From NCBI GenBank assembly GCA_033558025.1, contig JAUCEF010000002.1:2542001-2606000 (forward strand): a stretch of 64,000 bases of DNA. Reading direction: 5' to 3'. How positions within the stretch are numbered: the stretch's first letter is position 1; the number at the start of each line of letters is the position of its first letter. The notes beneath the pieces are model-generated. The model did not search any database. It was given only the letters and a program-made list of their open reading frames with translations, and had not been told where the DNA came from. The position numbers and the translations under genes are program-made. Shown piece by piece: positions 2,370 through 62,255 of this stretch. The stretch comes from Phytophthora sp. 'mugwort' (lineage: Eukaryota; Oomycota; Peronosporomycetes; Peronosporales; Peronosporaceae).

Positions 2370-2370
2370 A

Positions 2371-2388
2371 TGGTGCGCATGCCCGGAT
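2371..2388 (+). promoter_or_regulatory. Candidate primer-binding site of element 1
   Basis: One base after the 5' LTR the sequence starts with TGG (TGGTGCGCATGCCCGGAT), as expected for pairing with a tRNA 3' CCA end. It is conserved at 56361 in copy 3. I could not assign the priming tRNA, since no matching tRNA gene is in the window. Confidence 0.45.
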
Positions 2389-2653
2389 CTCTTGGCGACG
2401 CGGAATTTCACCGTGTCCCAAGATGATGCGCAAGTGAGCAATGGATCCGGAGATGAAGCGCCAACGTAGACTGGATTGACGACGGCGTCGCTGAAAAGAG
2501 ATCCGCGGGGCGACAGAGTCCTGGGAGGAGCTCTGCCGACGGAAGCGAGGATGGTCTGGCAACGGATCAGGAAGAGGAACCTCGCTTCCTCTCCAGGCAC
2601 CTTCGGAGACCCCCGCAGGTCTTGACGCGAGTCAGGACCTGTCGAACGAAGGA

Positions 2654-4745
2654 TTGTTCGCGAGAGCGAACGATCCTTCATCCACCACCACCCTAGCGTC
2701 CTCTAGTGCCATGTCTAAGAAGAAGACGAAGGCCACACGGAAGAAACTCAAGGCACCAGGCTCGGATAGCGAATATCGTGCTACATTGACGTCTACTTGG
2801 TCACGATCTAAGTTGGAGTCGGCGTACGTGCGTACGGAGCTGAACGACTTCCTGCGCAAGGACCCAGTGATGCGGATCCTGCAGCTGAAGCAGCTCGGAT
2901 CCCTCACCGGACCTGCGTCGCCCCCGTTGTCAACCACAAACAAGCTGGACGCCGCAATGGATCTGTTGAGGATGCTGGAAGAAGCCGGCCTTATGGCAGG
3001 AGCGTTCGACGCTGACGACCTGTTCCAGTTGGATGCCGACACGATCCAGATCTCGGCCGCGTCGCTCTTCAACTTGCTGAAGCCCACCGTGGGCGAGCGA
3101 TCGGCGGCTGCAGCGCCCGAGATCAAGACCGAGCACAGCTCGACAATCGAGGCCAAGGCCGGGTACGTCTCGTCGCCCGAGGACAAGGCGGCGTACACCA
3201 GGTCGCCGGAGTACCACACCGGATCATCGCAGTACGCGTCGGCTACGTCAGAAGTCGGATCCAGGAGCTCATCGGAGCCGCGACGGATGTCGCTTGAGCC
3301 AGCCGGTGCCGCGATGCTGCAGTCACGTTCTGCGAGCACCCTGGCAGATAAGATCCAGGCTCCGCGTCTAGTGAGACCGTCGCTAGCCCGGATCCGGTCA
3401 GCGGGTCCGGCCCAGGAACCGACGAGTGGTCTGGAGACGTACTTCCAAGCGGCTATGGCACGTTTCCTGAGCGAACGTCAAGAGGCCAGGGCCCGCGACC
3501 GGCTCCGCCCCCACGCGGTCCGGGATCGCAGGATTTTTCGACATGGAGTCGGTGAGATCGCAAGATCACCACCCCGAGCACTGGGCGTATGATCCGGATG
3601 ATCTCGACATGGGATCCACGAGACGCACGGCTACGACAGCAGCAGCAGTCGTTCCGACTGGATCGTCGACGTTAAAAAAAAAACGCGTCAAGATATCGAC
3701 CATCTCGGATCTGAAGGAATTCACAGGCAAGGATCATGATGAAGAGCGTGCACGAGGGTGGATCAGCAAAGTCAAGGTTGCATTCACGAGGGATCAAGCT
3801 ACAGACGAAGAGAAATGCCTTACATGCGCGGATCTGCTTACCGGACCCGCGAGGAACTGGTACAGGCAACTGAGCCGATCTACGCGGTCGAAGTGGAGTG
3901 ACTTGCTCAGGAGCTTCAGACGCAGTACTGTGGATTGGGAGTGTTGGTAGCATGGCACTACTACCACGCACGCAAGCGCGCAGAGGAGACACCACTGGAA
4001 TATATGCCACCGCCTCAACGTTGCAGGCATGCGCGCGAGGCTGATGATCAAGAATGGCGACGCGAAGGCCCGTCACGAGCACGCGAAATACTTCATCGAG
4101 ACTCTGGGAGACCAGGATCATGCGGATCAGCTCACACTGCTGCGCTTGGCTGACGCGGATCTGCTGGAGGATGTGCTGCGCGCGGGGTATCGAGCGAAGT
4201 CGCGCCAGAAGAAGTCGACCGGATCTGGCAAGCACCTATCCAAGTCGAGTCCTGCGCCACCAAAGGCGCCAGCCTGTGCTGTACGCGCTATCAAGATCCC
4301 TGATTCCGGATCCGAGTTCGGATCGGACTAGGAGAAGTCAGGATCCGAAGGCGAACTGTGCCGAGCGTACGTGACGGCGGCGAGTGACCAGTCTCAGGCA
4401 GTTGCATCAGCGGATCCGCCAAGAGCACCGGATCCTGGATGCTCGAACGATGCGCCAAAGGATCTTCGACAGCAGGATCGCCGCCCGCGTTTCAGCAGAG
4501 ATGGCCAGATGAGAATACTGCGGGTCGCGTAAGCACTCGGATCTTGAGGTTGGAAGCGTCTGATCTGTCAGAAGTGCGGCAAGAGAGGACATCTGTCAGA
4601 TCGGTGTTTTTTCGTGGGTCGTGGCGGTGGCGAACCCCACGATCCCGGCCAGGTGAAAGAGTTCTACAGCCTCATCTGTCAGTGGTTCGATCCCAGCAAA
4701 CATCCCGGACTACTACCTGATGCTGCTGAGAAGATGTTAAACTAG
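2654..4745 (+). pseudogene. Element 1 gag (capsid-like region and CCHC zinc knuckle)
   Basis: A structural polyprotein read in at least three frames. The first segment is 2654-3592, probably starting at the internal Met at 2711 (MSKKKTK). A capsid-like retrotransposon-gag block is at 3543-3947 (FTGKDHDEERARGWI, GPARNWYRQL). A continuation at 4029-4331 includes FIETLGD and ADLLEDVLR. A classic CX2CX4HX4C knuckle (CQKCGKRGHLSDRC) lies at 4566-4607. The frame changes near 3570 and 4000 are shared with copy 3. A further lesion near 3920 is private: copy 3 continues SFQTKYCGLGV where this copy hits a stop. Non-functional as a single protein unless the shared shifts are programmed, for which I see no slippery site. 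Confidence 0.8.
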
Positions 4746-4799
4746 GACGCTCGCCGGTTTTGAACCCGGTACGAGACGAGCGTTCTAGCTCATTCATCT

Positions 4800-5453
4800 A
4801 TGCATTCGTGGAGAAGAAGCCAAAGGATCAGGTTAGCGGATCGCGAGCTGATCTATTTGGTAATACATATGAACTTCATAAGAACTGCTATGGTTGCAAG
4901 TCTTCGACCTGTTGACGACTACCAACGATCCGAGGTCACGATGACTTTGGATCTGCGGCACGGCGAGTCGCGCGGATACTGGAAGTACCATGTCCCCGGC
5001 AAACACTACAACCAGGCGAAAGCTAACAGCAAGATCAACAGTGTCAAGGCTGTGGCGCTTCTTGACTCAGGAGCCGAGGTGTCGATCATCGACGCCACCT
5101 TAGCTCGTAAGGTAGGATGCCATACCCAACACAAGTCAGAGTCAAGAATGCCTCGGAATTGGTGAAAAGCTGTATGTCGCGGAAGGACGCACCCGGATCA
5201 AGCTTACCTTGGCGGGATCCTTGGTGTACTTCTACGACGTCTGGGTGGGAGACGATCTGCCGCCAGAGTACCAAGCTATCCTTGGCATGGACTCCATGGT
5301 CCCGGCTGGGATCCGGCTGGATTTCGGCGACGATCCATTTGCCTGCCGGACGAGGTGCGAGTTATGTGGCAGGGGTGCCGCCAGATCTTCAACGACAGAG
5401 CCCGCCCGGTGTTCGTGGCCGAGCATCTGACGGTAGGGTCGCAGAGCCCATGG
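4800..5453 (+). pseudogene. Element 1 aspartic protease (retropepsin)
   Basis: The catalytic signature ALLDSGAEVSIIDATLA is at about 5055-5105. The second conserved block (ILGMDSMVPAGIRLDFG) follows near 5280-5325 in another frame. Compared with the intact 209-codon version in copy 3 (58797-59426), this copy carries one extra base near 5127-5133 (CATACCCAACAC versus CATACCAACAC), which breaks the frame. It would process the Gag-Pol polyprotein if intact. Confidence 0.8.
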
Positions 5454-7625
5454 GGCTCCCGCTGCGGATCCGTTTATCTGACAACGAAAAACTGTGGCTA
5501 ACCCGCGGTGAGCGCTGGGTGCCCACCCTGGCCAAAGGCCCAGGCAGGATCCGCTACTTGCATCTCCCGAACCTGGGCGTCACGAAGCTGATCTTGAACG
5601 GGGACGTACAGATCGGACTATGGCTGTCCGGCGATCATATTCCTTGCCAGCCAGGCTTCGTCTCTGTAGGATTCGGCGCTACGCCGAGTGGCAAACCCTG
5701 GCGTGGGAAGCCACGGCATCCACCAAGCAGCGGCGCCGCCAGCGCCAGATCTGGGGCCCGCAGTTGACCGAGTGGAGTACGACCCGCCGGTCAGGATCCT
5801 GCCACGATCGAAGGCCCCTGAATTCGCAGGAAGTTAGGACGAGAGCTAGGAGACGAACAGGCTGTAGGTGACCTGCCCTCTGAATGCCAGTCAGGGACAG
5901 AACGGTGCGACACCTGAGTTGAGATATGAGCGTAATCACGCTCTGTCTCGTGAACCCGGCCGGTATCGGTGTCGTGCATGCGGGATGGACAATCGGCGCC
6001 AAGGTCGCGATATCTGACGGAGGCCCAAGAGAAGCTCCGTGGCACAAGAGGATGCGGCAGGCGCGCCCGACGACGGCGGTCAAAATGAGACCTCGCGCGA
6101 CCCCGGCCCGCCGACCACTGTCGTGACACGTGTCGCTGATTTCGGTGGGAAATGTGAGGCGATCAGGGACCAGTCACCAGGCCCTATACAAGGACGAAGC
6201 GAGGCCACGGTGTCATATTGCCAGGAACGCCTGACTGCCGCAATGCGCGCCACGAGGACCGCGCGAAGGGCACCTCGCCTAGCGAAGTCCCCACAGGGTG
6301 TTGCGCGGTCAGGCCTGATAAGGAAGTTGCGCCAGGAGAAGACAAAGCGAACGGTGCCGTCCACTAGGCCGACGGAAGCTTGAGGGTTGAGCAATCGCCG
6401 CTGATCAACGTGCTGGAGTCAGGTGACGTTCTGGATGTTGATCTCCGGGCGGCGATCTAGGATCCCCCCCCCCCACGGTTTCTGATCCCGCGGACAGCCC
6501 GAGGCCCATGGCAAGGATCGCCCAGAAAGATCGCCGACAGAAGGGCAAAGACGAATCTGGACGTTGGCACCAAGGTACATGGCGACTCGAAGGAGGATCC
6601 CGATGTCTGATACCATGACGGAGGCACGCTACATGCCGAAAAAGTGCAAAGCGAGCTGGCTGTGCTGCCGGTGGTAGCACCCACCACGGTCAAGGTGCGA
6701 ATCGAGGATCTACAAGTGGGGGACCCTGAGGTGAACACAGAGGAGGAGGAGGTCCGTCAGCTGCGGGACATTATCTAGTCCTACCATCACTTACTGATCG
6801 GCAAGGGCAAGCGCTGCCTCCTGTGGCTGTAGGCGTGGTATGTGACATCGACGTTGGCAAGGCCACCCCCAATCGCACAACGTGTGCGAAAGATCCCCCC
6901 CCCAGTTCCGCGAGAAAGTATAGGATCTGCTGAAGGGACTGCTGTCGGCCAAGATCATACGACACTCAACGTCTCCTTGGGCATCCCCAATCGTGGTGAT
7001 CATCAAGAAGAATGGTGTGGACATAAGGTTGTGTATTGATTAGATGGTCTACCCGATGCCCTGATCAATGATTTGCTCGAGGATCTCGACAAGGTGCTGT
7101 GGTATTGCTTGCTGGATATGGCGAGCGGCTTCTGGGTGGTGTCTATGACGGATCGCGCTCGTGCCAACTCGGCATTCACCACGCCGTTTGGCCTGTTTGA
7201 TTGGAACCGCATGCCATTTCGATTGAAGAACGCTCCACGGATCTACCAGAGGCTGATCGACAACGCACTGTACGGCTTCTTGCGGATCCCACAAGCGGCG
7301 GATCGAGGATCCTCAACGGACATCTTCGAAGGAGGAGATCCGGAGGAAGTAGGTGAACCTTCCGTACTGGGGCGTCAATCCTACATCGATGACATCCTTG
7401 TTACGGCCGGATCCTGGGATTTGTGCGAACGAGTGAGCTCCTGCTCGCGGCCTGTAATAAGTGGAATATCTCGATCAGTGTCGCGAAGAGCTTCTGGGGA
7501 CTGAAGAAGGTAGATTATCTCGGGCATCATCCATCCATCGAAGGCTTGGAGGCTCATCCAAGAAGGATCTCAGTGCGCTGGTGGATTGCCATTCCCGAAA
7601 TCGTTACGGTCTATGCAGTCGGTTT
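5454..7625 (+). pseudogene. Element 1 pol linker and reverse transcriptase
   Basis: A linker (5454-6600, several short frames, a C-run at 6465-6475) precedes RT. RT motifs: SAKIIRHSTSPWASPIVVIIKKNGVDIRLCID (6945-7040), MVYP.P.INDLLEDLDKV (7043-7095), LDMASGFWVV..T..ARANSAFTTPFGLFDWNRMPFRLKNAP (7105-7245), SYIDDILVTAGSWD (7379-7420) and SFWGLKKVDYLGH (7491-7530). About 28 nt are missing after LCID relative to element 2, deleting the conserved YR..N...R segment and creating a stop. Copy 3 has the same lesion. The YIDD pair itself is intact. Confidence 0.85.
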
Positions 7626-7661
7626 GGGTAGTCCGAACACTACGGACGCTTCATCGAAGAT

Positions 7662-8250
7662 ATGGCGGTGTACGGGTCGGTGTTGTACGAGCTGCGAGAG
7701 GTGGAATTCGCCGCGATGCGTGCTGAGAGCAACATCGCTGTCAACGAAGGAAAGATCGGCCGAGAGGTCTTCGAAGGCGGGGACCCCCAGCTCGATCAGG
7801 ATCCGGAGGCATCAGAGCAGAAGTGGATCCGAGTTAGAGCAGCTTTCGCCACACTAAAGAACAAGATCGCGACGACCCCGATCCTCCGGCACTTCGACCA
7901 GGAGAAACAGTCCGTGCTGATCGTCTACGCCAGCGAGTGGGCAGTGTCCGCATCCCTGGTGCAGGATCACGACGGCAAATACTTGCCCGTGATGTTCACG
8001 AGCCGCACGCTCAAATCGAACGAGTTAAACTACGGCGTCGTGGAGAAGGAAGTGCTAGCGCTGCTGTGTATACTGAATCTGGGTTATTCGATGCTGGTCG
8101 GCAAATCAATTAAGATCCTGACGCGGCACTTGACTTGGCTTGGCTTTCGCGCTGCAGGGCTCCAAAGGCGGCTCGGACAATGGCGCGCTGAGATCGCCCT
8201 GTTGGAGATCACTAAGTGCACGAAAGGCGAGGGTGAGATCTTGGGATCGC
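7662..8250 (+). pseudogene. Element 1 first (retroviral-type) RNase H, degenerate
   Basis: The RT-linked RNase H fold is recognisable by LKNKIATTPILRHFD, YASEWAVSASLVQDHDG, FTSRTL..NELNYGVVEKEVLALL and the trailing LGQWRAEIALLEI. The first catalytic Asp expected in the TDAS-type motif is absent (VYASEWA). Element 2 also lacks it (VSASEWA), so it is not simple decay of one copy. Loss of activity in the first RNase H alongside a gained second one parallels the tether domain of retroviruses and plant Tat elements; that functional reading is inference. Confidence 0.8.
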
Positions 8251-8257
8251 TAGCTGC

Positions 8258-8743
8258 GTGCGTAACGCCACGATCGATAGTGGATCAGGCACGCATATAT
8301 CAATTGCACCGCGGAACGAGACCCGCCGAGCAGTACAGACTCCGATCCCTTCAGTGAAGCCCGACGCGAAACGCCTGGTCGCTAGTTTCGACGGATCCGC
8401 GAGAGTCAAACGCGGCGGAGGCGCCTTCAGCGCTATCGTGTGGAGGTTGCCCGAGTGGACGGTGGTCAAGGCGGAGTCAGTATGGGCAGAAGATATAACG
8501 GTCAACGAGGCGGAGTACGGTGGGTCTGCTAGAAAGACTGGATCGAGGACGTCTGGTGATTTGTGGGGAATCCAACTTGGTAATCCGACAGACGATGGGC
8601 GAGGTCGACTGCAAAGCTCCCGCGTTGACGTTATTGCGGCAAAGGCTCTACACCGTCTAAGATCCTGGCCGGATCATGACCTGCTTCATGCCAAGCGAGC
8701 AGGGAACGCCAGCGCAGATAGTCTGGCGGGTGCGGCGTTTTAG
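8258..8743 (+). pseudogene. Element 1 second RNase H (plant/archaeal-like type), broken
   Basis: A second RNase H follows the first: FDGSARVKRGGGAFSAIVW (first Asp), TVNEAEYGG (Glu), then GNASADSLAGAAF (last Asp). Relative to copy 3 (62256-62757), about 17 bp are replaced by GT just after EAEYGG, shifting the frame and losing the LCFDLLERL helix. The usual third acidic residue is Glu rather than Asp in this lineage (CGESN in copy 3). Such extra RNase H domains are known from oomycete Chronos/Archon and plant Tat elements. Confidence 0.8.
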
Positions 8744-8763
8744 AGCGGGAGGAAGGTACAGAG

Positions 8764-10075
8764 GTGACGGATGACCTGGCACGGAAGGATTTTGTGATGC
8801 TGAATCGGTTACCCGAGATCCTGACCACAGCTACCGAGCACACTACGCTTCGAATCGCAGCCATGGCGACTAGATCCCACCGGAAGGTCACTAACCTTAG
8901 TGTGATGCAGGAAGAGGCGGTCCGCCAGCTGAGCGTGGATCATATCCGACAAGCTTAGGACGAGGAGAAGTGGATCATGAACCTCAAGAAGTACCTTCAA
9001 GGGGATGTGAAGGATCTTGAAAAGGACGAAGCTCGGGTGTGCAGCAACGTGGCTGCTGACTATGAGATGGATGAACAGGATCTACTCTACTACTGCCCGC
9101 CGTCTGCGAAGGTGGAGGAAGAGAGAGACGGGTTGCTTCTTGTGGTTGTCCTCGAGACGCTGCACGAGAATCTACTTCATCACTACCACGTCAGTCTGGA
9201 GGGCGGTCATCACGGAATCGGCCGAACATATCAGCGGATCTGGGATCACTTCTATTGGCGTGGACTCTTCAGTAGCGTACATCGGTTCGTACGTGAATGC
9301 GTGGATTGCGAGACTGGCAAAGGTGCGACCGACCATACGCGGCGAGTCACTCGGCAATATCCAGGCCACCTACTCTTTCCAGGTCATAGCGATGGATCAC
9401 ATCCCCTCCCTGCCCAAGTCGTACAATGGCCACACGGAACTCCTAATCTGGATAGATCTGTCAACGGTTACGTCATCGTCAAGGCTGCGCGTCCCGGACA
9501 GCCCAAACGATCGCGGAATCCTACGAGGAATGTGTGTTCCGACGCTTCGGTGCGAGCGAGGTGATCCGGCATGACAGGGAGCTGGCTTCATGTCTGACTT
9601 CTTCAAGGCGTTCAATCGCATCCTGGGCCAGAGACAGCGAGCCACCATGGCTTATAGGCCTCAGGGTAACGGGACTGTGGAACGCATGGTGCAGACGGTG
9701 ACGAGATCCATCAAGATGTATGTCGAGGACGAGAACCACAGCGCGACTGGGATGAATATGCAGAGAGCCTGACGTTCGCTGTCAATACGGCACACTACCG
9801 GATCCGGGGGACACCCCGTTTTACCTTACGCACGGTTGGGATCCACGCACAACGCTAGAGGCAACTCTCCCGCTGGGCAGCACGAGACGCCAAGATCGGG
9901 ATCCACGCCGAGGGCGGTACCGGATCCAGCGCTATTACCAGCAAGCGAGAGCGGACGTGAACGAGAGGCTGAAGAGGCTATTACGGATCGGGCCGAACGC
10001 CACAATGACAGCGTGGAACCGCATCGGATCGAGGTCGGCACTCGAGTGTGGCTATATCTGGATCGAGTCAAGGAA
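8764..10075 (+). pseudogene. Element 1 integrase
   Basis: The zinc-binding HHCC domain is clear (LLHHYHVSLEGGHHGIG...VRECVDCETGKG, 9165-9330). The catalytic core follows in broken frames: MDHIPSLPKSYNGH..LLIWIDL (9391-9460), a shifted RHDREL segment (9560-9580), MSDFFKAFNRILGQRQRATMAYRPQGNGTVERMVQT (9590-9700) with the catalytic Glu of NGTVER present. The C-terminal strand IEVGTRVWLYLDRVKE is at 10030-10078. At least three frame changes disable it. Confidence 0.82.
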
Positions 10076-10229
10076 TGATACGCGCGGAAGCTAGCGCATA
10101 TGTGGCATGGCCCCTTCCGAGTGTTGGAGATGGTGCAACCTTTCGTGGCTCGACTGGAGACAGCCGGAACAGATTATCACCTTTTTCCGGTGGTGCATGT
10201 GTCCAAGTTGAAGCCTATGAGAACATTCC

Positions 10230-10548
10230 CAGATCGTCCAACGACACGCTTGGTGGTCGATGAGGAGGATCGTCTCGACTTCGACGAGGCGCTTTTACCT
10301 GAAGCCAGCTGGCATTGATAGCTAGAAGAAGGGGAGTACGAAGTCGAGAAGATCAGTGACATGAGGTCGGGCCGTCGAGCCCGCTATGGGACGATCACTG
10401 CGCGAGTTCAAGGTACACTGGCGAGGCTACGACGAGCTCACCTGGGTTGACGAGGCGGATTTGAACGGTGGGGCGCTGTACGTGAGTTCCTGCAGGATCT
10501 GTCCAAGAGGAGTCGTTCCCAGGTGATGCAGTCGCACGAGGAAGCTTA
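10230..10548 (+). pseudogene. Element 1 C-terminal chromodomain
   Basis: Chromodomain residues are split by one frameshift: YEVEKISDMRSGRRARYG at about 10338-10390 and FKVHWRGYDELTWVDEADL at about 10407-10463. In other chromodomain retrotransposons this module targets integration to modified histones. It closes the sense-strand coding part of the element; the next 3.4 kb hold the antisense gene. Confidence 0.75.
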
Positions 10549-11001
10549 AGTGGTGGAAGCCACGGCAGCAAGCTGGTTGTTGCAGGTGATACTGAGGTGG
10601 AAGGCTTGCAGGAAGGCTGCAGGTGTGAAGGAGGAGGATCCACGTCCGCTATTTGTTGGTGGGCGTGACGAAGTTGGCAGAAGCTCCGCGGGAAGGCTGT
10701 GAGAGAAGATGGAGGAGGGTTCCCGCCTGGCGAGTTGGTCGCCACGGCGGATGAAGCAAGAGAGAGGATGCAGGGAGACTGCATGCTTAAAGATGGAAAG
10801 GGGAGTGAGTGAGCATGTAACCAGGAGATTCGGATCTGTTGAAACAACTAAGCTCGCTACAAGAAACGGAAGATCTCAGAACGATCAAGATACGACATAC
10901 GCAGGACAAATTAGCCGAAGCAACAGATGAATATTGAACGGATTAGTAGTACACGCAAGACTGATCACTACCGCTACCAAGTTAGTGGCGTACGACGTAT
11001 C

Positions 11002-13920
11002 CTACTCATGATCCGGAGCAGGCGGAGAAAACTTCATGCGAAGCCGGCCGATCTGGCGAGACGGATGAGAAGTCGTATTCATGCGGAAGTGATTGCGCCA
11101 CGTGGCGCTCCTATCACGGTCCGCGAGAGCCGCGATCAAATCTTGGGGCGTCCCTCTGCGATCGCCTCGCGTCCGGGAAACCATGCTGTGTCTTCGGACT
11201 GCAAAGGAAAATGCATCAACACCGGATCTAGCAGCAGGTCCAGGTCACAGCAGCCCGTCCGGCAAGCTTTCTCAAAGATCTGATCTTGCAGATTCCGGAA
11301 CTTTGCGCGAGCGTGCGAGCTCCGATTCTTGCGCCCACGGTAGAAAGACGCGAACCACGCGTGCGCGTCCCGCTCGGACGTTGGGATCGAGAAGGTTTGC
11401 GTAGCTTCCCAGTAGGCCTGGCGGTGATCCTCTTCGTAGGCAGATAACCCGGGGCGAGCGCTGCCACCTCGGCGGATCTGGCTGGATCGAAAGTAAGCGG
11501 TTTCAAGGCAGGTACGTCGAGGGCCTTCCACGGCTCCTCCCTGTACAGAACCCTGATGTTCTCCCTCGTGAGCAGGCTCGGAACGTAACGCGAAGGATCC
11601 AGTTGCCCCCCGCGACTGGCCCGCTCAGGGAACATCCACCCGGCCGAGAGCACCCGGTTGTCGATCAGGATCCGGGGCGTGAGGGTGTCGAGGGTGAGCA
11701 TACTAATCTATGAAGGATACCAAGGTGCTACCTCTTCTGCGATCACGACTCGCGTCTGATGGAAGCCGGGGAGAAAGCTATCCTCAGGACCGAACAGCTT
11801 GGAAACGGGATCCGTGGCGGGTGTACCGGCCGAAGGGGTCTGACTGGGTATGCTGGCCGCCGGCGTCGCGCCTTCCACCTCTTCCTTCGCTTCGGCAGAG
11901 TTCAGATCATAATCGACCACGATGGGTGTAGCTTGAGATCCCTCGCCACCGGAGATCTCCGCGGAAAACTGCGTCGACGGGCGTCGATCGGGATCGCGCC
12001 AGAGCCATGAGTAGTTCGTCGTCGTCGGAGCCGTCGAAGATCGCGTCCGAGGCGATGAGCGCGGCGTCAGATCCACTACTACTAGAGATGGAACCGGGAT
12101 CGGAGCTAGATCCAGAACCTGTGCGTGGGAACTCGTAGTCCCCATCACCGACCTCAGCCGCGGCGTCAACAACGAGATCCAAGGAAGATCCTGGTTGAAC
12201 TGAAGACACCTTCGAGGCCGATCCGGAGGTAGTTGCGCCATTCACCGCAGGGGAAGAGGAACGAGGCACCTTTTCGGGGAGGGGGGCCTCGGATCCTCGT
12301 GGCGAGGAGAAGCGGGTGGACTCAAGGGCCTCTTGAGAGAGGCCTGGTCGCTGCGAGCCACTGAAATAGACCGAACGCTACATGCAACCGACGAGCTCCG
12401 CATGGCGGCCGAGGCGATTGACGCTAAGCTGTCAGCAGCACTGTCCCGCTCCATGACGGCCGACTCGTGCTTGCCGAGCAGGCCTTGATGATCTCGCGAC
12501 AAAAGCTCATGCTGACAGCGGAGTTGATCAAGATTTTGGCGGACCAGCTGGTACGCTTGCTGCATATCCAAGATCTGCTCAAGGCGATCTCTCTGGGTCT
12601 TGAAGTATTGCTGCCTCTTGGGTATAGCCTCGTCGAGATCCAGGCGTCGCTGATCGCGTTCGTTGCTGAGCTGAGTCACTTGGCCGCCACAGATTTCAGA
12701 TCTCGCCGAACTTGGGCGCCAGCGCAGGATTTGGTGTTCGCGCGGGTACCTGACTCTGGGTCCTCTTGCGTTCTTGAGCGATGGTGTCGCGAGCAGCTTC
12801 GAGGGTCTTCTGGTCCACGCGGAGATTACGGAGTTGACCTTGCGTCTGGTGCAGCGAACATCGGCACGCGCTTGATCTCGGTAAGCTGCCCCCAGCGAGC
12901 GCTTCAGGCGCTCGATCGCCTCTCAGGCAGCATCTAACTTGGCCACGGTATGATCGTAAACCCTGTGAAGATCCGCGCGGCAACGCTCAGCCTTGTCAAG
13001 AAACCCTCTAGCTCGAGGATCCGCTCACCTCGGACGTGTAGCTCGATCCGTGCAGCATGTAGATGTGCCGCGGGAACCGATCCGTCGAGCCGTTGGTGCG
13101 CTTGGTGCAGTTCTTCCCGCAGAGGCTGAGCTTCACGTTCCAGATTACGGACATGCTGCTTCCGTTGCTCGTGGCTACGCTGAAGTTCCGCTTAATTTTT
13201 CTGAGGACGAAAGCGACCTATGAATGCCGTGTCACGCTCGGATCGAGCGGTTTGACACTGCTGCTTAAGGTCGGCGGATCGCTGCCTCACCCCAGTTGCT
13301 TCATCCCGCAGATCCTGCAGATCTTGCACAAGTGAAGGGCCAGCCCTGGGCAGATCGGCTGGCGTGGCACTGCCATGGTCAGATAAGCGACGCTCCAGAC
13401 CGAGGGCATAGTCTTGCAGGCGTGTGTATGCCTCCGCGCTGGTTTCTTCTAGCAAGGCGTATCGCGCCCGCAGATCGTCGAAGCCCTGGACCTCCCCGCG
13501 GAGACGGTCAGCTTCTTGGCGCGTTTCTGCTTCAAGCTGCGTGACTTGACGAAGTCGCCCCTGGATAACGTCGTAGCGGTGCTGGACGAAGTCCACGAAC
13601 GAGCGCGCAGTCGTCCAGTTGGGCTTGGCCAACGTGTGAAGTTACTCGTTGTGGTGACGCGCAGCAACCAGATCCCGCAGGGCTTGCTGATGCTTGGCTA
13701 GCAGCTCGTCGTAGGCACCAACGAAGTGTGGATCGACGTTGCCGCGGCGCGCAGCGGATCCAGGACCAGCACTACCGGAGTTGCCGCCGCTGAAGGATCT
13801 GACGGTGCGTGATCACAGTGCGCACATGGAGGAGGGGCGTCCGGAGACAGACTTTGCCCGGCGAATAAGGCAGCGCGAGGCGTGGCGTCAGAGTCATGGG
13901 CGTGATGGGCAGACGACATG
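11002..13920 (-). pseudogene. Antisense gene of element 1 (coiled-coil protein, unknown function)
   Basis: A ~970-codon gene on the strand opposite gag-pol, between pol and the 3' LTR, broken by a few frameshifts and a TAA near 13650. From its start (ATG at 13920) it has a Pro/Ala-rich N-terminus, a long charged coiled coil (13192-13740, for example RLRQVTQLEAETRQEADRL; and 12420-12983), a Ser/Pro stretch with SPP and SPKR (12245-12330), an acidic/Ser block (SDDDELLMALARSRS near 12015) and a C-terminal domain (11002-11701). Landmarks match element 2: PWKALD, YLP, RQAYWEAT, WFPGRE, TWRNHF and QIGRLRMKF. I do not recognise the family. Conservation in a second diverged element argues against a chance ORF. 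Confidence 0.75.
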
Positions 13921-14024
13921 GTAAAGAGGCTTGATCTGGGTGGACGGCGGTGGGTTGAATTGTGGATCACGTGATACAGTGTGTTACCGTTGCACGGTGG
14001 TAACAACGTGTCAGCGGTGGATGG

Positions 14025-14924
14025 TGTAGTATTGCAGATCCGGATAAGATGGAAGTTGACCGGCAGCCGGAAGGTCCACGCGCCAGTGGCAGCCATAACA
14101 GCGTCAAGGTGATGGATCCGGACCATGCGACACGCCAGGTCTGTATATGGTACGAATCCTGGATCCATCCGCTGGGGTAAGGTCTAAGTCTAGATCCGAT
14201 CAGTTTTAGTACACACCGGGTTGAAGATCCGTAGCTAAAGGGAGGTAGAGTGGAGACGGGTGGCCAGGAATAGGTCAGAGATGGGATCCTGGGTTATGCG
14301 TTATCCGTAGGATAGGTTGTGGGATGGGATCCGAAGGTAGATAGGCTAAGGTATAAATCAGATCCGAATTTGCGCTGGAAGACAGACTTGACTATGATAT
14401 AGGGGATTTCTATTGTCCCCATACATAGATCAAGTCTAACTTTGGCGATCTTCCTACACACGTGGCAGCCCCTGGATAGCTAGCTTGGCCAGGTCACGCT
14501 CGCCCTTTGGTTTCTCAACCCCCCCCCCTCTCAAGATCCCGCTGTTGGAGGCGGCAAGCATCGTACACGGACAACTCCGATAAGGAGCAAGGACACCTCA
14601 AGAAGGAACATCCCCGGATCTCGTATTTCTATTATGGATCCACAAGGTCTGCGCAAGAAGCTCAAGACCACACCAACACCTGATCTCGTGCGCAGGAATA
14701 CCGCGCAGATTCACCCCCTCCCAAGTCCCCACAAAGACATTCAAGGCCCACCAAGTGCACGTCTCGTGTCAACGAGAGAGCAGTACCAGCCCACCGACGG
14801 GTACACAAGGTGAACCACTCAGCAACAACGCCGCCGTCGGAGTACCCCCTCCGATAGTCGGTGTCTGGACGCAGTGCGTGCGAGTTGGAATCCTACTGAA
14901 TTTCAGCGGATCCACTTCACCACA
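14025..14924 (+). repeat. 3' LTR of element 1 (900 bp)
   Basis: Begins TGTAGTATTGCAG directly after a purine-rich GGTGGATGG (14016-14024, candidate polypurine tract) and ends CACCACA at 14924. The left half carries variants shared with the LTR of copy 3 (TATGCGTTATCCGTAGGATA, TGTCCCCATACATAG). The right half has private variants not seen in copy 3. Confidence 0.93.
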
Positions 14925-14928
14925 ACTG

Positions 14929-15625
14929 GATGCCTGTGACAAATGAAACTTGTCCATCAGTAGTCGTCAAGAGTTTCTGGGGACTAAGAAACGTTGAGTA
15001 CCTGGGGCATCAGGTATCGATTGAAGGCCTGGAGGCACATCCGAAGGATGTAAAAGGGTCGACCGACTTGCCTTCTCGGAATCGCTTAGATCGATGCAAC
15101 CGTTCCTGGGCAGTTTGATATTATTATAGCCGATTAATCGAAGACTATGCAATTTATGCAGCAGTCTACGTGAAGTGGATTTTAACGAACTGGGGACGCG
15201 TCAAGATCTCCGTCGAACTCTCGACGAAACTCTTCCCGATCCCGATATGGACGTTCCTGATCCAGACAGATGCAGATATGGTCTATCTGACCAACGGAAG
15301 ACGGGTCTGAGTGTAGCGGACGAGAAGCGGATTCGGGCGTCCAGATCCTTTAACAAATTGAAGGAGAAGATCGCCGTCACTCCGATCTTGCGTCATTTCG
15401 ATCCAGATCGTCAACCGGTTGTAGTTGTTTCTGCCAGTGAATGGGCGATCTCGGCCGCTCTGATGCAAGAGCACGATCGCGTGTACCACCCTGTGATGTT
15501 CGCGAGTCGTACCTTGAAGTATAATGAACATAACTACAATGTGGTAGAGAAGGGTGTGTTGGCCTTGTTGTGGATCTTAGATCTGAACTACAACATGCTG
15601 TTGGACGACAGATCCGGATCCTGAC
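14929..15625 (+). pseudogene. Element 2 RT C-terminus and first RNase H
   Basis: The RT thumb/connection has a TGA replacing the Trp of DACDKW, followed by VVKSFWGLRNVEYLGHQVSIEGLEAHP (14960-15045). RNase H at 15340-15624 shows LKEKIAVTPILRHFDPD, VSASEWAISAALMQEHDR, FASRTLKYNEHNYNVVEKG. As in element 1, the first RNase H lacks the canonical first Asp (SASEWA). The end runs into a frameshift near 15620. Confidence 0.82.
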
Positions 15626-15659
15626 CAGACACTCGACGCTGGCATGACTCTTCAATGCC

Positions 15660-16277
15660 TGGTCTCCAGGGAACGATTAGGGCAATGGGCTGCACTCCTG
15701 TCGCCATGGCGCTCGAGATTGAGAAGTGTACCAAGGGAGAAGATGCGATCTTGGGGACGCTCGCCGCCAGCATTACAACTCGGCCAAGGTGGACGAGGCT
15801 TCGATCGCGATCGCACCCAGGAAAGAGCCACGCCGTCAGATCCAAGCACCGATCCCAGTAAGAGGCGCGGACAAAGAGCAGTTTGTGGTGAGTTTTGACG
15901 GATCTGCACGAGTAAAACGAGGTGGCGGTGCCTATAGTGCGCTTTTGTGGAAGTTACCTGAGTGAACGGTTTTGGAGTCCCGATCCGGCTATGCCGCTGA
16001 TCTGACTGTGAACGAGGCAGAATACAACGGACCCCTGCTATGTTTTGACTTATTGAACAGGATGACGCAGGGACGTTTGGTAAATTGCGGTGATTCAAAT
16101 CTGGTGATCAGACAAGTACGAGGCGAGATCGACGGCAAGGCACCCGCATTGACGCTGTTGAGGCAGAAGGCCTTGGATCGGCTTAAGGTCTGGCCAGATC
16201 ACGAACTATTACACGTGAACCGCGACTGGAATACTAGTGCGAACAGTTTAGCCAGCGCTGCGTTGCAGCGGCAGTAA
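15660..16277 (+). pseudogene. Element 2 second RNase H
   Basis: Order: GDARRQH/ILGTLAASIT linker, VVSFDGSARVKRGGGAYSALLWKLPE (15885-15962), one TGA at 15963 in place of a Trp codon, LTVNEAEYNGPLLCFDLL (16003-16055), VNCGDSNLVIRQVRGEIDGKAPALTLLRQK (16082-16170) and LLHVNRDWNTSANSLASAAL (16209-16268). The Asp, Glu and Asp of the active site are present. The last acidic position is Asn (SANSLA; element 1 and copy 3 have SADSLA). Otherwise nearly intact. Confidence 0.83.
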
Positions 16278-16280
16278 TGA

Positions 16281-17770
16281 GTGATCATCAACGTGGTGGA
16301 GGCGTATCAGGATCTGGTCACGCTGAATCGTTTGGACGAGATCCTAATGATCCGACCGGAGGACACCGTGGTGCGGATCTCGCCAGTAGCTACCCGATCA
16401 GGGACCAGATTCGTACACCGACCGACAGTTTTGGATGAGGTTTTGTGGAAGATCTCCGTGTCGATCGTATCCGACAGGCCCAAAACGAGGAAGTGTGGAT
16501 AGCAAGTTTGAAGAAGGATCTGACTGGAGATGTGACCGATCTCACACAAGATCAAGCTAGACTGTGTGGCAAAATAGCGTTGGCCTATAACGTTGACGAC
16601 AATGATCTGCTGTTCTACTGTCCGCCTACCAAGAGATCGAAAGTAGATCGGGACGGATGGATGAGGCTGGTCGGGCCCGAGGCATTCCACTTGATATCTT
16701 GCATCACTATCATGCGAGCGTTGAAGGTGGTCATCAGGGGATTGGTTGTACATATCAACGGATCAGGGATTATTTTCACTGGAGAGGTTTATACCGTAGT
16801 GTGCAGAGATGTGTGGGTGAATGTGTAGACTGCGAAACTGGAAAGGGTCGTCCCTCGATCAGAGGATAATCGCCTGGAAATCTCCAAGCAACATATCATT
16901 TCTAGATCATTGCAATGGATCACATACCCTCGCTGCCGAAGTCGTTCAAGGGCAACACTCAACTACTGATCTGCGTTGATCTGTTTACGGATCTCGAAGG
17001 CAAGTGCGTCTACGACGGCCCAGAAACGATCGCCGAGTCGTACGAAGAGTGTATCTTTCGGAGATTTGGTGCTAGCGAGGCGATCCGCCATGATCGAGAA
17101 CCCGGATTCATGTCTGGCTTCTTCCGAGAGTTTAACAAGATCCTCGGGCTGGGACAGAGAGCGACGATGGCGTATCGACCGCAAGCAAACGGGACAGCAA
17201 AACGGATGGTACAGACCATAAATCGAGCCTTGTATATGTGCGTCCAAGATCTACACTAGCCGGATTGGGATGAGTACGCGGAGCGACTGACGTTTGCGAT
17301 CAACAGAGCCCACGGGTGCGAGGGGATACACCATTCTATCTCGTAGATGGATGGGACCCAAGATCGATGTTGGAAGCCACCATACCTTTGGGTAGTATTT
17401 GCAGCCGAGACCGAGATCCTAGGCGATGGAGGTACCAGATCCAGCATTACTACACAACGGCAAGGGAACAAGTCAATGTTAAGCCAAGGAGGCGATATCA
17501 GATCGAGTTGATCGGCATAATGAAGAGGCCGATCCGTCAGATCGAAGCCGGATCACAAGTTTGGCTGTATCTGGATCGCGTGAAGGAAGGATACGCGCGT
17601 AAGCTAGCACATCTGTGGCATGGTCCGTTCCGAGTTGCAAAGAAGATCAACGAGTACTCACTGCGCCTCGAGATCGCAGTAACGGAGTATCTGCTCTTCC
17701 CGATTGTACATATGTCCAAATTGAAGTTCGTCAAGAAATTCCAGATCGGCCACAGATCGAGTTGACTGTA
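16281..17770 (+). pseudogene. Element 2 integrase
   Basis: The HHCC zinc domain lies at about 16690-16850 (ILHHYHASVEGGHQGIG...GECVDCETGKG). The catalytic core at 16915-17256 reads MDHIPSLPKSF...LLICVDLFTDLEG, IRHDREPGFMSGFF and YRPQANGTAKRMVQT. The catalytic Glu that follows NGTA or NGTV in relatives is Lys here (AAA instead of GAA), which should abolish strand transfer even without the frameshifts. The C-terminal barrel IEAGSQVWLYLDRVKEGYARKLAHLWHGPFRV is well preserved (17535-17640). Confidence 0.84.
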
Positions 17771-18056
17771 CCAGTCTCGGATCGACTGGATTTTGATGAA
17801 ACTCTGTTGCCCGAAGGTAGCTGGACAACGGATTTAGAAGCAGATGAATTCGAAGTGGAGAAGATCACTGATCTGAGGCCAGTCAGAAGAACTCGGTATG
17901 GTAGGATCTATCGGGAATTTCGGTACATTGGAAGAGATATGCAGACCCAGCTGGGTAGACGAAGCCGATCTCAACTGCGGAGCACTCCTTCACCATTTCC
18001 TTCGGGGACAGGCTAACCGGAATCGTTTCGGTGTGATGCAGTCCCACGAGGAATAG
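17771..18056 (+). pseudogene. Element 2 chromodomain
   Basis: FEVEKITDLRPVRRTRYGRIYREFR (17849-17925) is followed, after a frame change, by a WVDEADLNCGALLHHF stretch (about 17960-18005). It matches the position and sequence of the element 1 chromodomain. Confidence 0.72.
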
Positions 18057-18438
18057 TGAGATCGAGGGAATCGCGGCGAGTTGGTCACCGCGATGATGGA
18101 TCGAAAAAAAGGATCTCTGGGAAGGCCATGGATCGGAAGAAACGGGTGATGTATGTGACGTTATGCATGTAATGATTGGTGCACCTGATATGGCTTTTCT
18201 GCTGTTACAGGTGTATCTGGAACACACGTCGAGAAAATGAAGAAGGAAATCCGGATCGTGTAAGCTCCCGACGAAGTAGTAGGACGCATGAAGACCCAAA
18301 GCAGTCAAGACGGAAGAAGTAAGTAGGAATGAAAAGAAGAATGGCTAAGATGAATGCAGGGAGATCTACTCAGCGAACGGCCGTTTCACGCGAAATTGTC
18401 GAGATGGAAGACCAGAGTTAAGTGTAGAACCAACCGAA

Positions 18439-21103
18439 TCAAGGGTCGAACTTGTTCCGAAGTCGACCGATCTGGTACGCCGGATGTTCCATAGGCCGAT
18501 CACGAAATTGGTTGCGCCACGGATCGGCGGTGTCAGCTTCACGTATGGTCTCCAGATGGTCACCAGGTTCAGCTCGGTGAAGATCGGGGTCAACAAGGTT
18601 GGCTCCCCGGGATGCCCGACCTGGATACCAAGTCCCATCGTCCCTCGTGGTCGGGAGGTGAAGGAAGAAATGATCGAGAAATCGATCCAGATCGTCCCAC
18701 CGCTCACGCATCATCAGAGGAAATGAACGGAGCAACGGTCTCCAGCTGTCGCCCGCTCGGATCCGCCTCTGACGACGGCCATGATGGTACTCCTCCACTA
18801 CTGGGTCACGACGTTGTTCAGCGGTGATCGGGAGATAATGAGTCGTCTCCCAATAAGCTTGGAGATGTCGTCGTTCGATAGGGAGATAGGAACATGCGAT
18901 CTGAGCGAGAGTGGTATTCGAACTGCGATGGAGCGGCTGATCGAAGGGCTCGTCCGGTTTATCCAGCACCTCCCAGGGTCGAGCGGCGATCAAGGCCGTG
19001 ATGTTTGGACCAGTAATCAAGTTGTCCAGATAGTCGATACCGGCCCTGGGGGCGCGGACTCCCTCGCACGCACCGCGGGAACAGCCAGCCAGAAAGGATC
19101 GGGAGCCGGACGGTCAAGGTGCGCCATATTATGGCGGTTACTTGAAGCTTACCCAGAGTCATCGCCGGCTACGCATCAGTCTCGGACTGAGAAAGAGCAA
19201 GTGGCTGATCGTGTCCAGGCAGTGAGATCGATGCCGGAAATAGCGGCGGGACTAATTGCCACCGAGGAGATCCAGGAGGGGTAGCCGAAGGACTTCCGGC
19301 ATCAGGTCCAGCGGAACCATAGATCAAGAAGGAGAAGCCGGGCGGACTTGGGGAACTAGGCCCACATTGAAACAGCCGATCCCGTTTGAGCAGCCGCGAC
19401 CTGCGTGTCCAGGACTCGCCGGATGACGAGCCGCAGGTGTCTCGTCAGATTCGAGTAGAGAGCCATCGGGGGTGCCAGGATCGGCTGTCTCGACCGGTTG
19501 AGAAGCATCGCCGCCCGGTGGTGTGCCGGATCGGCGACGAGCTTCAGAACGAGATCGGGACAAAGCAGCCAACGCTTGATCATCGCTGTCCTCCTCTTCA
19601 TCTTCTTCACCTTCCCCGATTCTGACCTCCATATGGGACGCAACTGAGCCTTGTTCGCTGTCGATCCCCGGACCATTGTCGTCGATCTCTGGCTGAGGCT
19701 CCGATTCGGCTAGGGGGGCGACTCCCGCCGAAGACGAACTGCCAGGACCTTGCGTCGGGCAGTCGGAACCACCGGGCGGCCAGGAGCAGGAACGGATCGA
19801 CTACCCAACGGATGCTTAGGCGAAGGGCCAGCTGGAGAAGGGGAAGTCGATCGGCTGCGTTCCCGTTTACCAGATCGAGCGAGACCAGAACCACTAGGGC
19901 TCATTAGTAGTACCACTTCGGCTAGACACTCGGTGACCAGATCGACGCCCGTGCCGATTTCGTCTTGGGTCTGACGTAGCCGGTGAGCAGTCTGGAGATC
20001 TGCGATCTGATTTTCCAGCGCACGAATGGTCCGCCGAGATGTACCCAGCTCCACACCTGCATATCAGAATTGTCGAAGGAGAGTTAGGTATGACTCAGCT
20101 AACTCGACAGACAGAAGATCATGATATTTACGGGCGTCAGCAGATTCCGTCGCAGCTGTATCCCGACCACGGATCATGGTTGCGAGATCAGACTGTAAAG
20201 GAGATTGGCCACGTCGTAGGGTATCGACGTCAGCTTGAAGGCGATCTCGATCGAGTTGGAGCCGATTCCGCTCCGCGCGAAGTTGATCATGCTCGCGGAC
20301 GAGCTCAACAGCAGTAGAGGTGCTGGTCCATCGACTCGTGGATACCGGACCGGCTATCGGAGCGGAAGAAAAGACCCGGTCAGGCCTGATCTGGGTTTGG
20401 CGGAGTTCGTTCTTCAGCCGCGTCACATATGCTAAAACTGCGTCCAGTTCCACGCGGAGACGAGCTGACTGAGTCCCATCGGTGTCCGGGAGCTCTACGC
20501 TGTCGCTTGGTCCAGAGCAGCTTGAGTGGAGTTCTGGCTAACGCGGTCAGATTCGAGATCGACACGATTCTCATCCAGTTCTCTCTCCTGAGTGATGATC
20601 CGGTCGCGTGAGTCGTCGACCTCTTCCTCGCGGAGCTCCAGACGATACGCAAGTTCGTCACAGCGAGCCGCAGCTTCGGAGAGTTTTTGATGAACACTGG
20701 AGAGACGGCCCTCCACGTCTTGAATCTCAGCGGCCTGCTGACGAAGCTGATCGCGGAGATGACGAACGATCATCTGATCTCCCTGGGCTGGGAGAGCGTT
20801 ATCGATCTCAGCCCGGAGTCTCCGGATGTCCTCGCTTGGTCGTGCCGGAATTGCTTCAAGGCACGCAGATCATCAGACATCTTGGCTATGACACGATCCT
20901 GGTGCATGCGATCTCGCAGAAGGTCGTCACGAGTACTTCGCGTGGACGGAGTACATCTTCCGGGTAGGTCACCTGACGCGCCACGACTTGAGTTGTCGAG
21001 TCAACGAGAGCATGCGAGGCGGCAGAACGACGTGACCTAACATCGTGGGGCGAAGCGGGCGGCGATCGGCCTTCGTCAGGGACGTCGGAGTGGTGATCTC
21101 TCA
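18439..21103 (-). pseudogene. Antisense gene of element 2 (coiled-coil protein, unknown function)
   Basis: Opposite-strand gene in the same place as in element 1, about 890 codons from ATG at 21103 to the stop at 18439, with some frameshifts. The coiled coils are clear: 20495-20773 (RLSSVHQKLSEAAARCDELA) and 20064-20453 (LVREHDQLRAERNRLQLDRD). A Ser/Pro/basic block (SRSTSPSPAGPSPKHP, near 19850) and an acidic block (EEDEEEDSDDQALAALSRSR, near 19590) follow. The C-terminal domain is intact over 194 codons at 18439-19020 (PWEVLDKP, LQAYWETTHYLPIT, DLDRFLDHFFLHLP, TWYPGR, PWRNQF, YQIGRLRNKF). No known fold recognised. Confidence 0.78.
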
Positions 21104-21197
21104 TGAAATTGGGAGTAGATGGCTTGTTGGGGTGAAGATTGAGAAGTGTGAGCGGAGTGTGGCCGCTGTACGGCAACGACTTCGGACAGGGGGAGGT

Positions 21198-22530
21198 TGT
21201 GGAGAAGCGTCAACCAAGAATATCAGATCCCTAAGGAATGGCCAGATCGGTGAGAAAGGCGGACCAGCTGTGAAAAGAGGGGCGATCGAGCCAGATCTAG
21301 ATACGAGGTAAAGGCGGGGCGACGTTCGACTTAATCAGATGTGCAAGGGGATGCTTCGATGACGAGGAAGGAAACCAGGGTCGAGCAACCACCCAACACA
21401 GATCTGTTATACTGTGATCACCCGACCGATCGAGGATCGAATGAATATTCGGAACCCGAATCGAGGGGGGTGTAAGAGATCAGGACTGGCGAGCGGTGAC
21501 GACATCGATCAGACTGGATCTAACCCCGTTTGACCTCGGTCGGACCCCGATCGTGGCGGATCTGGGGTCCGCGGGTTGGCAGATCGGACCGATCTGGTGT
21601 TCAAGGTTCGGAGGATCGGGCAGCTCCGGTGCCCACAGGTCGGCCTACAGCCCGCTGTCCGAAATCGAGCGGAACGGATCGAACTTACGGACAGGATCGG
21701 GCAGATCGGGTTGATCGGTTTTCACCGATCGGCATAGAGGTTCCGACATCCACGGTCTGTCAGATCGGCATATTTGTTCTGATATACACGATCTGGCAGA
21801 TCGACGTACGCGTTCAGACATCCGCGATCGGGCAGATCGGGACTCGATCAGCAATCATCCTCGGGGATGTGCAAGCGTGAAGACGGTACGTGTTGAGCGG
21901 TTGAAGAAGGCAACATTCAGAAGATTCAGGTGGCACGAGATAGGGTTCAGGATGGGAAAATAGGACCAGAAAAGGATAAACAACGATCAGACTCGAATTT
22001 ACATTGGACTACTTATGCGTTTTTAAGTGCCGCTGGAAGGGATCTACATTGGCCCTCCTAAATATCAACTAGACCAAGGTAGCAGATCAAGCGTCGCGGT
22101 GAGAGGATCGGATCGGACATTGTCCGACCCTCCCCACGCTAGCGAACTTCTGCTGAAACGCATACCTCGATCGGCATTCAGTGCTTGGAGCAACTCAAGG
22201 AAAGGAGCAACGCCACACGGCAACCTCGGCCTCGGATCAAGTCCAGGCCGCCGATCGAAGGTCGACTACCTCAGATCGGAATCAATAACGGCAGCAGAGC
22301 AAAGACTTCCGCGCTGCCCCACGCCCCTGCCAGGACTTTCAAGACTTTACATCGCTGTATCCTTCAGAGTCTCAAGAGAGCCGATCCAGCCCACCGACGG
22401 CTACGCAAGGTGAGACAAAGTTCAGCTAATTCACGCGTCATCGGGGAACCCCCTCGGTTAGTCGGTGTCTGGGCGCAGTTTGGTAAGCGGATCGGGTCTT
22501 AAGCATATTTTGACCGATCCCGCTACGCCA
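21198..22530 (+). repeat. 3' LTR of element 2
   Basis: Begins TGTGGAGAAGCGTC immediately after a polypurine-like ACAGGGGGAGGT (21186-21197). The start is confirmed by an inverted partial copy at 49905-50373 that ends at the same base. It contains three imperfect 36-bp tandem units at 21725-21832. The distal part retains AGCCCACCGACGG and GTTAGTCGGTGTCTGGGCGCAG, shared with the LTR of element 1. The end is not certain: the first plausible terminal CA is near 22475, the second at 22530. Confidence 0.75.
21725..21832 (+). repeat. Three 36-bp tandem repeats in the element 2 LTR
   Basis: Units at 21725-21760, 21761-21796 and 21797-21832 share the pattern (C/A)GATCGGCATA...TTC.GA.AT.CACG.TC.G. Each holds two GATC tetramers or close variants. 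Repeats in the U3 part of an LTR often act as promoter or enhancer elements; no activity can be read from sequence. Confidence 0.6.
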
Positions 22531-55438: not shown

Positions 55439-55452
55439 TCAGCGGTGGATGG

Positions 55453-56359: not shown

Positions 56360-56640
56360 ATGGTGCGCATGCCCCGATCTCTTGGCGACGCGGAATTTCA
56401 CCGTGTCCCAAGATGATGCGCAAGTGAGCAATGGATCCGGAGATGAAGCGCCAACGTAGACTGGATTGCCGACGGCGTCGCTGAAAAGAGATCCGCGGGG
56501 CGACAGAGTCCTGGGAGGAGCTCTGCCGACGGAAGCGAGGATGGTCTGGCAACGGATCAGGAAGAGGAACCGCTTCCTCCCAGGCACCTTCGGAGACCCC
56601 CGCAGGTCTTGACGCGAGTCAGGACCTGTCGAACGAAGGA

Positions 56641-58742: not shown

Positions 58743-58796
58743 GACGCTCGCCGGTTTTGAACCCGGTACGAGACGAGCGTTCTAGCTCATTCATCT

Positions 58797-61632: not shown

Positions 61633-61659
61633 GAACACTACGGACGCTTCATCGAAGAT

Positions 61660-62250: not shown

Positions 62251-62255
62251 GCTGT

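What the first reader, a model, noticed from the sequence alone, without database searches (positions are those of the whole stretch)
11002..21103. A large antisense protein gene conserved in two diverged Gypsy elements
Seen: both elements carry, on the strand opposite gag-pol and between chromodomain and 3' LTR, a ~890-970 codon reading with the same order of parts. These are a Pro/Ala-rich start, long coiled coils, a Ser/Pro stretch, an acidic block ending in AL.RSRS, and a C-terminal domain sharing PW..LD.P, YLP, QAYWE.T, DLD..LD...(M/L)H.P, W(Y/F)PGR, WRN.F and QIGRLR.KF (11002-11701 and 18439-19020). The two LTRs are mostly unrelated, so the similarity is at protein level over long divergence. 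Known: antisense ORFs occur in some plant Tat/Grande elements; I do not recall one in oomycete Chronos-type elements. Inference: a retrotransposon-encoded accessory protein expressed from its own antisense promoter, possibly with a role in regulation, assembly or evading silencing.
Basis: partly seen in the sequence, partly recalled or inferred. Interest (0 to 1): 0.88.

Follow-up and report, generated by a model that had tools for sequence, protein, structure and literature searches.

The report
Backwards accessory gene in oomycete retrotransposons
Two related families of jumping genes in a water-mould genome carry an extra protein gene written on the opposite strand; their copies show that natural selection preserved this protein, which echoes an arrangement known from plant elements.

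Summary
Both elements carry, opposite gag-pol and between the pol end and the 3' LTR, the remains of a ~890-970-codon gene. The window copies are broken by frameshifts and stops, and the family-1 element (1476-14925) is nested inside the family-2 element. The gene is an integral part: in 44 of 50 loci the pol end is in reach, and in all 44 (38 distinct copies) it is antisense and just downstream. Relatives are uncharacterised proteins of five Phytophthora species; two (964 and 893 aa) hold both coiled coil and C-terminal domain. Substitutions shared between copies favour third positions of the antisense frame (F1 118/106/164; F2 41/30/75), as in pol, though more weakly than pol in F1; private substitutions and non-coding stretches show no significant bias. 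So the protein was under purifying selection while the elements were active. It has a coiled coil, a basic nuclear-signal-like cluster, an acidic stretch and a helical C-terminal domain without a Pfam or clear fold match. Most likely it is a nuclear accessory regulator, working like the antisense ORFs of plant Tat/Retand/Grande elements, with no homology to them found. Expression, promoter and function are untested.

The parts
1476..14925 (+). Family 1 (F1) Chronos-type Ty3/Gypsy element, nested inside the F2 element
   Evidence: LTR pair 92.6% identical; L060 collinear with window 1-1476 and 14925-15277; apparent 4-bp target duplication ACTG read by eye from the flanks printed
1476..2370 (+). 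F1 5' LTR
14024..14925 (+). F1 3' LTR
7040..10400 (+). F1 pol remnants: RT (PF00078), native RNase H (PF17919), second RNase H (PF13456 in relatives L063 and L061), integrase H2C2 (PF17921), chromodomain region near 10268-10400
11002..13919 (-). F1 antisense gene remnant (about 972 codons from ATG to stop, several frameshifts)
   Evidence: similar in pieces to P0007 (964 aa) and P0015 (893 aa)
11002..11947 (-). F1 C-terminal region with the helical domain (three frame pieces 11014-11157, 11145-11441, 11441-11947)
   Evidence: tblastn with P0007, 42-65% identity
11931..12047 (-). F1 acidic block ending in the AL.RSRS motif
   Evidence: tblastn with P0007, 56% identity
12266..12682 (-). F1 end of the coiled coil and the basic Ser/Pro stretch
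   Evidence: tblastn with P0007 (40%) and P0020 (41%, 12317-12682)
12985..13716 (-). F1 N-terminal coiled coil
   Evidence: tblastn with P0015 residues 34-250, 32% identity, E 7.9e-17
14926..22530 (+). F2 element, right-hand part (left part is 1-1475); outer boundary approximate
   Evidence: L059, L060
1..1475 (+). F2 element, left-hand part separated by the F1 insertion
   Evidence: L060 2121-3584, 78% identity
18439..21104 (-). F2 antisense gene remnant (about 888 codons)
   Evidence: open C-terminal piece 18439-19020 of 193 codons
18442..19071 (-). F2 C-terminal helical domain
   Evidence: tblastn with P0017 and P0019, 43% identity, E 2e-44 and 1e-42
55452..64000 (+). Second F1 insertion, running off the window end; its antisense gene lies just outside (L065)
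   Evidence: 98.4% identity to 1476-9985; L065 tblastn hits

Best explanation
Shown: a protein gene encoded on the strand opposite gag-pol, between the end of pol and the 3' LTR, is a standard component of two diverged families of Chronos-type Ty3/Gypsy elements in this genome, and its protein was held by purifying selection while they were active. Inferred: it is transcribed from a promoter at or in the 3' LTR reading inwards (the F1 start codon is 105 bp from the LTR edge). Inferred: the protein oligomerises through its long coiled coil, enters the nucleus through the basic cluster after the coiled coil, and uses its conserved helical C-terminal domain to act on the element's own DNA, RNA or chromatin state. 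In that role it would regulate the element's transcription, silencing or integration, as an accessory protein rather than a capsid or enzyme.
For: Fixed place and orientation in 44 of 44 loci in which the pol end is in reach, of 50 examined. Collinear copies L061, L063, L064 at about 84% DNA identity across pol and the antisense gene. Third-position excess of shared substitutions in the antisense frame, duplicate rows removed: F1 118/106/164 (p 6.6e-4), F2 41/30/75 (p 1.1e-5); pol F1 17/11/37, F2 36/31/72; non-coding F1 32/30/33, F2 36/48/39; private antisense changes 241/210/244 (p 0.22) and 119/110/121 (p 0.73). P0007 (964 aa) and P0015 (893 aa) hold both coiled coil and C-terminal domain, among 21 relatives. 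Heptad periodicity z 7.0 and 6.9 with no proline in residues 251-350 of P0007 and P0015. Basic clusters after the coiled coil in P0007, P0020 and P0015, and near the N-terminus of P0021. All-helical core of the C-terminal domain.
Against: No transcript, promoter or localisation data. No oomycete initiator-like motif near either start (consensus recalled). The nuclear signal was judged by pattern only. The third-position excess in F1 is weaker than in pol, and three of six F1 pieces show little or none: 11014-11157 (9/6/11), 11442-11930 (54/41/41), 11931-12047 (13/9/11). In one search private pol F2 changes were not flat (114/103/142, p 0.028), so private changes are not a perfect neutral control. 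18 of 21 relatives are under 600 aa, and gene models may join exons. The DNA around the other species' proteins could not be seen, so their antisense position there is assumed.
Confidence: 0.55

Rival explanations
1. The antisense protein is structural or assembly-related: its coiled coil and helical domain join Gag in the particle or escort the pre-integration complex.
For: Coiled coil and helical domain would suit assembly.
Against: An antisense gene would need its own transcript rather than the genomic RNA; the basic cluster and acidic stretch look nuclear; no Gag or capsid family matched in Pfam; fold searches gave no clear match, which is weak evidence.
Confidence: 0.2
2. The protein counters host silencing, for example by binding small-RNA or chromatin silencing factors; the UIM-like DDExLQVALARSRSD motif would bind ubiquitinated host proteins.
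For: The motif is present in 10 of 21 relatives and in 1 of 2000 shuffles of P0007; small RNAs map to Gypsy elements in both orientations in P. infestans (PMC3522703, passages).
Against: No UIM family among Pfam matches at E up to 5 for 9 relatives; the strict motif is absent in the P. sojae and F2-like relatives; no functional data.
Confidence: 0.15
3. The antisense RNA, not the protein, matters (double-stranded RNA or antisense control) and the reading frame is incidental.
For: Antisense RNAs with regulatory roles are discussed for plant elements (PMC7264820, passages).
Against: Codon-position bias in the antisense frame in two families, protein-level conservation across Phytophthora and long protein models.
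Confidence: 0.05
4. It is an unrelated host gene or other transposon inserted once in a common ancestor and carried passively.
For: Origin unknown; the relatives found are all from Phytophthora apart from one unnamed metagenome protein, so one ancient capture is plausible as the origin.
Against: Passive carriage is contradicted by codon-position bias within each family and by 44 of 44 orientation.
Confidence: 0.05

Closest known systems
Antisense additional ORFs (aORF-3R) of plant Tat/Retand elements: maize Grande gene23, rice RIRE2, Silene Retand (PMC7264820 and PMC11963269, abstract and passages seen)
   Same: Antisense gene between pol and 3' LTR, conserved across copies and species; for Grande a nuclear protein and antisense transcription from its own upstream promoter are reported there. 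Tat elements also have a second RNase H (PMC10508981, passages).
   Different: 97% of the Retand clusters encode the TRP28 domain (PF04195), which did not match any protein tested here. Hosts and RT lineages differ. Promoter and localisation are untested here.
Chronos Ty3/Gypsy elements of oomycetes (PMC5348765: section 5 read, passages elsewhere)
   Same: Dual RNase H, integrase, chromodomain at the pol end; reported from Peronosporales and Pythiales.
   Different: The word antisense does not occur in the paper's main text and no third ORF is described in the section read; the gene here is an addition to the described structure. Figures and supplements were not seen.
Boty of Botrytis cinerea (named in PMC7264820 passages as carrying an antisense ORF between pol and 3' LTR)
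   Same: Non-plant example of the same layout.
   Different: Protein not compared here.
HBZ-type antisense genes of deltaretroviruses (PMC7264820 and PMC11963269 passages; PMC10186651 search listing and start of abstract only)
   Same: Antisense gene driven from the 3' LTR region; nuclear regulator is the analogy (recalled).
   Different: Not compared by sequence; host and size differ (recalled).

Membership tests
Chronos Ty3/Gypsy elements | Dual RNase H: native Ty3/Gypsy RNase H followed by a second RNase H | tested here: met
   PF17919 in F1 and F2 window frames; PF13456 over cut-off in F2 (21.9 vs 21.6 bits) and in the F1 relative L063 (36.4 bits), below it in L061 (20.2 bits); the window's own F1 frame gave no match
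Chronos Ty3/Gypsy elements | Chromodomain at the 3' end of pol next to integrase | tested here: inconclusive
   L061 frame after the integrase tail: Chromo E 3.1e-5, 24.2 bits against a cut-off of 25.1; two further short frames no match; window frames no match; none of the 150 listed genome-wide matches lies in the window
Chronos Ty3/Gypsy elements | RT falls in the Chronos clade | not tested
   No Chronos reference sequences were fetched
Plant Tat/Retand antisense aORF | ORF antisense to gag-pol between pol and 3' LTR | tested here: met
   (broken in the window copies)
Plant Tat/Retand antisense aORF | TRP28 domain (PF04195) | tested here: not met
   hmmscan of 7 fragments (E up to 1) and 9 relatives (E up to 5): no PF04195
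Plant Tat/Retand antisense aORF | Antisense transcription from its own promoter; nuclear protein | not testable with these tools
   No RNA or localisation data; only a basic cluster by pattern
Ubiquitin-interacting motif proteins | UIM profile match | tested here: not met
   No UIM family in Pfam scans at E up to 5; pattern resemblance only

The most novel reading that the evidence does not exclude
Chronos elements evolved, independently of plant Tat elements, both a second RNase H and a long antisense accessory gene between pol and 3' LTR. The protein is a new family, restricted to oomycetes, that acts in the nucleus on the element's own expression or silencing. This would be a further convergence between plant and oomycete retrotransposons.
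Probability: 0.4. Interest if true: 0.75.

Novelty: new variant of a known kind. Interest (0 to 1): 0.62.

Why it matters
Antisense accessory genes in LTR elements are known mainly from plants, with unknown function. A selected counterpart with no detected homology, in oomycete elements that already converged with plant elements on a dual RNase H, suggests a recurrent need. It makes the function testable by comparison: what do an antisense gene and a second RNase H do together? It also suggests that a set of hypothetical proteins in Phytophthora gene catalogues are transposon genes.

Tried and rejected

Selection counts: one search counted pairwise differences (pos3 over mean of pos1-2: antisense pieces 1.16-1.96, pol and gag 1.16-1.67, LTR and non-coding 0.90-1.30). 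One search separated shared from private changes but held duplicate rows (L026 with L024, L049 with L062). One search repeated it without these and without the near-identical second copy (L065 and the window copy at 55452); it also left out pol and gag pieces 3471-3947, 15130-15621, 16439-16600 and 16606-16866 (few or no rows) and changed the non-coding and F2 piece borders. Both calls gave the same direction.

Paper searches for print precedent; none of the papers listed was seen to report an antisense ORF in an oomycete LTR element, but listings were capped (25 of 217, 20 of 30, 12 of 89) and for most only title and start of abstract were seen.
Full report
What is there. The window lies at G000:C2:2542001-2606000, in an unnamed 86.3-Mb genome; Phytophthora or a close relative is inferred, because all 20 named relatives of the antisense protein among 21 found are from Phytophthora. 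The F1 element spans 1476-14925 with LTRs at 1476-2370 and 14024-14925, 92.6% identical. It sits inside the pol region of the F2 element: L060 runs collinear with window 1-1476 and then 14925-15277, overlapping by 4 bases, and the flanks read as a 4-base duplication ACTG (by eye). A second F1 insertion starts at 55452 and is 98.4% identical to the first over 8.5 kb.

The antisense genes. On the minus strand F1 has an ATG at 13919, 105 bp inside the 3' LTR edge, and a stop at 11004-11002. F2 has an ATG at 21104 and its C-terminal open frame ends at 18439. Both window copies are broken: F1 switches frame several times and both have stops. The two regions match each other best in four collinear minus-minus hits (E 8.7e-12, 1.5e-10, 3.0e-5, 2.5e-4). 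Weaker short hits with other frames exist, the best at 5.5e-4 over 21 aa.

Part of the element. Searches of the whole genome with the two C-terminal pieces gave 116 and 111 matches (pieces of copies, overlapping sets). Of 50 loci cut from the best of these, the pol 3' end is in reach in 44; in all 44 pol lies on the opposite strand and downstream of the antisense C-terminus. The other 6 have no pol end in reach. Several loci are pieces of one copy; by the coordinates the 44 are 38 distinct copies, two of them the window's own. L061, L063 and L064 align with the window from gag-pol through the antisense gene at about 84% identity.

Domains of pol. RT in F1, native RNase H, a second RNase H (PF13456), integrase zinc binding and a chromodomain just below cut-off in one relative resemble the layout published for Chronos elements (PMC5348765, section 5). 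Against it, no chromodomain match was found in the window frames or inside the window among 150 listed genome matches. RT phylogeny was not tested.

Relatives. Of three protein searches, one returned none and two returned 21 distinct proteins: 20 uncharacterised proteins from P. rubi, P. fragariae, P. sojae, P. cinnamomi and P. fragariaefolia, and one metagenome protein. P0007 (P. rubi, 964 aa) and P0015 (P. sojae, 893 aa) hold coiled coil and C-terminal domain; P0020 (P. fragariae, 799 aa) ends before the domain; the other 18 are under 600 aa. P0007 and P0015 share 57% identity over 224 residues near the C-terminus and 25% over the coiled coil. The first hundred residues of P0007 look like a gene-model artefact (my judgement). 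The C-terminal domain keeps W-E-x-T, R, DLD..LD..F, W.PG, WR and R..KF in nearly all 16 aligned sequences.

Selection. I aligned copies and classed variable columns by codon position in the antisense frame of the window pieces, separating changes seen in one copy (mostly after insertion) from changes shared by two or more (mostly from the active lineage). After removing duplicate rows, 17 F1 loci and 16 F2 loci plus the window were offered; 4 to 18 rows contributed per piece. Antisense F1, shared: 118/106/164, p 6.6e-4; private: 241/210/244, p 0.22. Antisense F2, shared: 41/30/75, p 1.1e-5; private: 119/110/121, p 0.73. Pol shared: F1 17/11/37, F2 36/31/72. Non-coding shared: F1 32/30/33, F2 36/48/39. 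The shared-versus-private contrast is p 0.012 for F1 and 3.8e-4 for F2. Against the reading: the F1 excess is weaker than in pol; three of six F1 pieces (11014-11157, 11442-11930, 11931-12047) show little or none; and in the earlier count private pol F2 changes were biased too (114/103/142, p 0.028; 95/80/105, p 0.18, on fewer pieces). The chi-square tests treat columns as independent.

The protein. Residues about 150-400 show heptad periodicity (z up to 7.0 in P0007, 6.9 in P0015, 7.7 in P0020) with no proline in residues 251-350; a proline-rich stretch, acidic in P0007 and P0020, follows. Basic clusters follow the coiled coil in P0007, P0015 and P0020. A UIM-like motif occurs in 10 of 21 relatives, mostly close ones, and no Pfam UIM match was found: a lead only. 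AlphaFold2 gives a helical C-terminal domain (P0003: mean pLDDT 69.0, pTM 0.66, ten-residue blocks up to 93, last 33 residues under 50); no clear fold match.

How it may work. Shown: position, orientation, selection, protein-level conservation. Inferred: expression from the LTR edge, oligomerisation, nuclear entry, action on the element's own DNA, RNA or chromatin. The comparison is with plant Grande, whose antisense gene is reported to be transcribed from its own promoter and to make a nuclear protein (PMC7264820, passages), and with Retand elements, in which 97% of clusters have TRP28 antisense ORFs (PMC11963269, abstract). TRP28 did not match here, so it may work like, but is not shown to belong to, that kind. 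Independent gain of the dual RNase H in Tat and Chronos is reported (PMC10508981, passages), which is why a second shared trait would be convergence.

Novelty. [quoted passage not shown] In the paper searches done (capped listings) none was seen to report one for an oomycete element, and the Chronos paper's main text has no occurrence of antisense. I therefore call it a new variant of a known kind.

Noticed in passing
window 55452-64000 and G000:C2:2606001-2611600 (L065): A second F1 insertion 98.4% identical to the first lies 54 kb downstream and runs off the window.
   Followed up: partly
G000:C12:3344138-3418904 and G000:C13:2064932-2159144: Reverse-transcriptase matches spaced at about 6.7 kb in head-to-tail runs with open frames up to 2184 aa: tandem arrays of an RT-encoding element.
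   Followed up: no
L059 (G000:C4:2297000-2306900), L010 2112-3569: An F2 copy lies beside a 486-aa open frame whose sequence looks like Copia-type polymerase (by eye).
   Followed up: no
window 21198-21652 and 49902-50373: Inverted pair, 82% identical, linking the F2 3' region with a second site in the window, perhaps LTR pieces.
   Followed up: no
G000:C3:2732962-2734107 and 2752158-2753303: Two F1 copies with equal scores in opposite orientation about 19 kb apart, suggesting an inverted duplication.
   Followed up: no
window 23339-24607: A 422-aa open frame with an Arg/Ser/Asp-rich tail, looking like a host splicing-type gene next to the F2 element (by eye).
   Followed up: no
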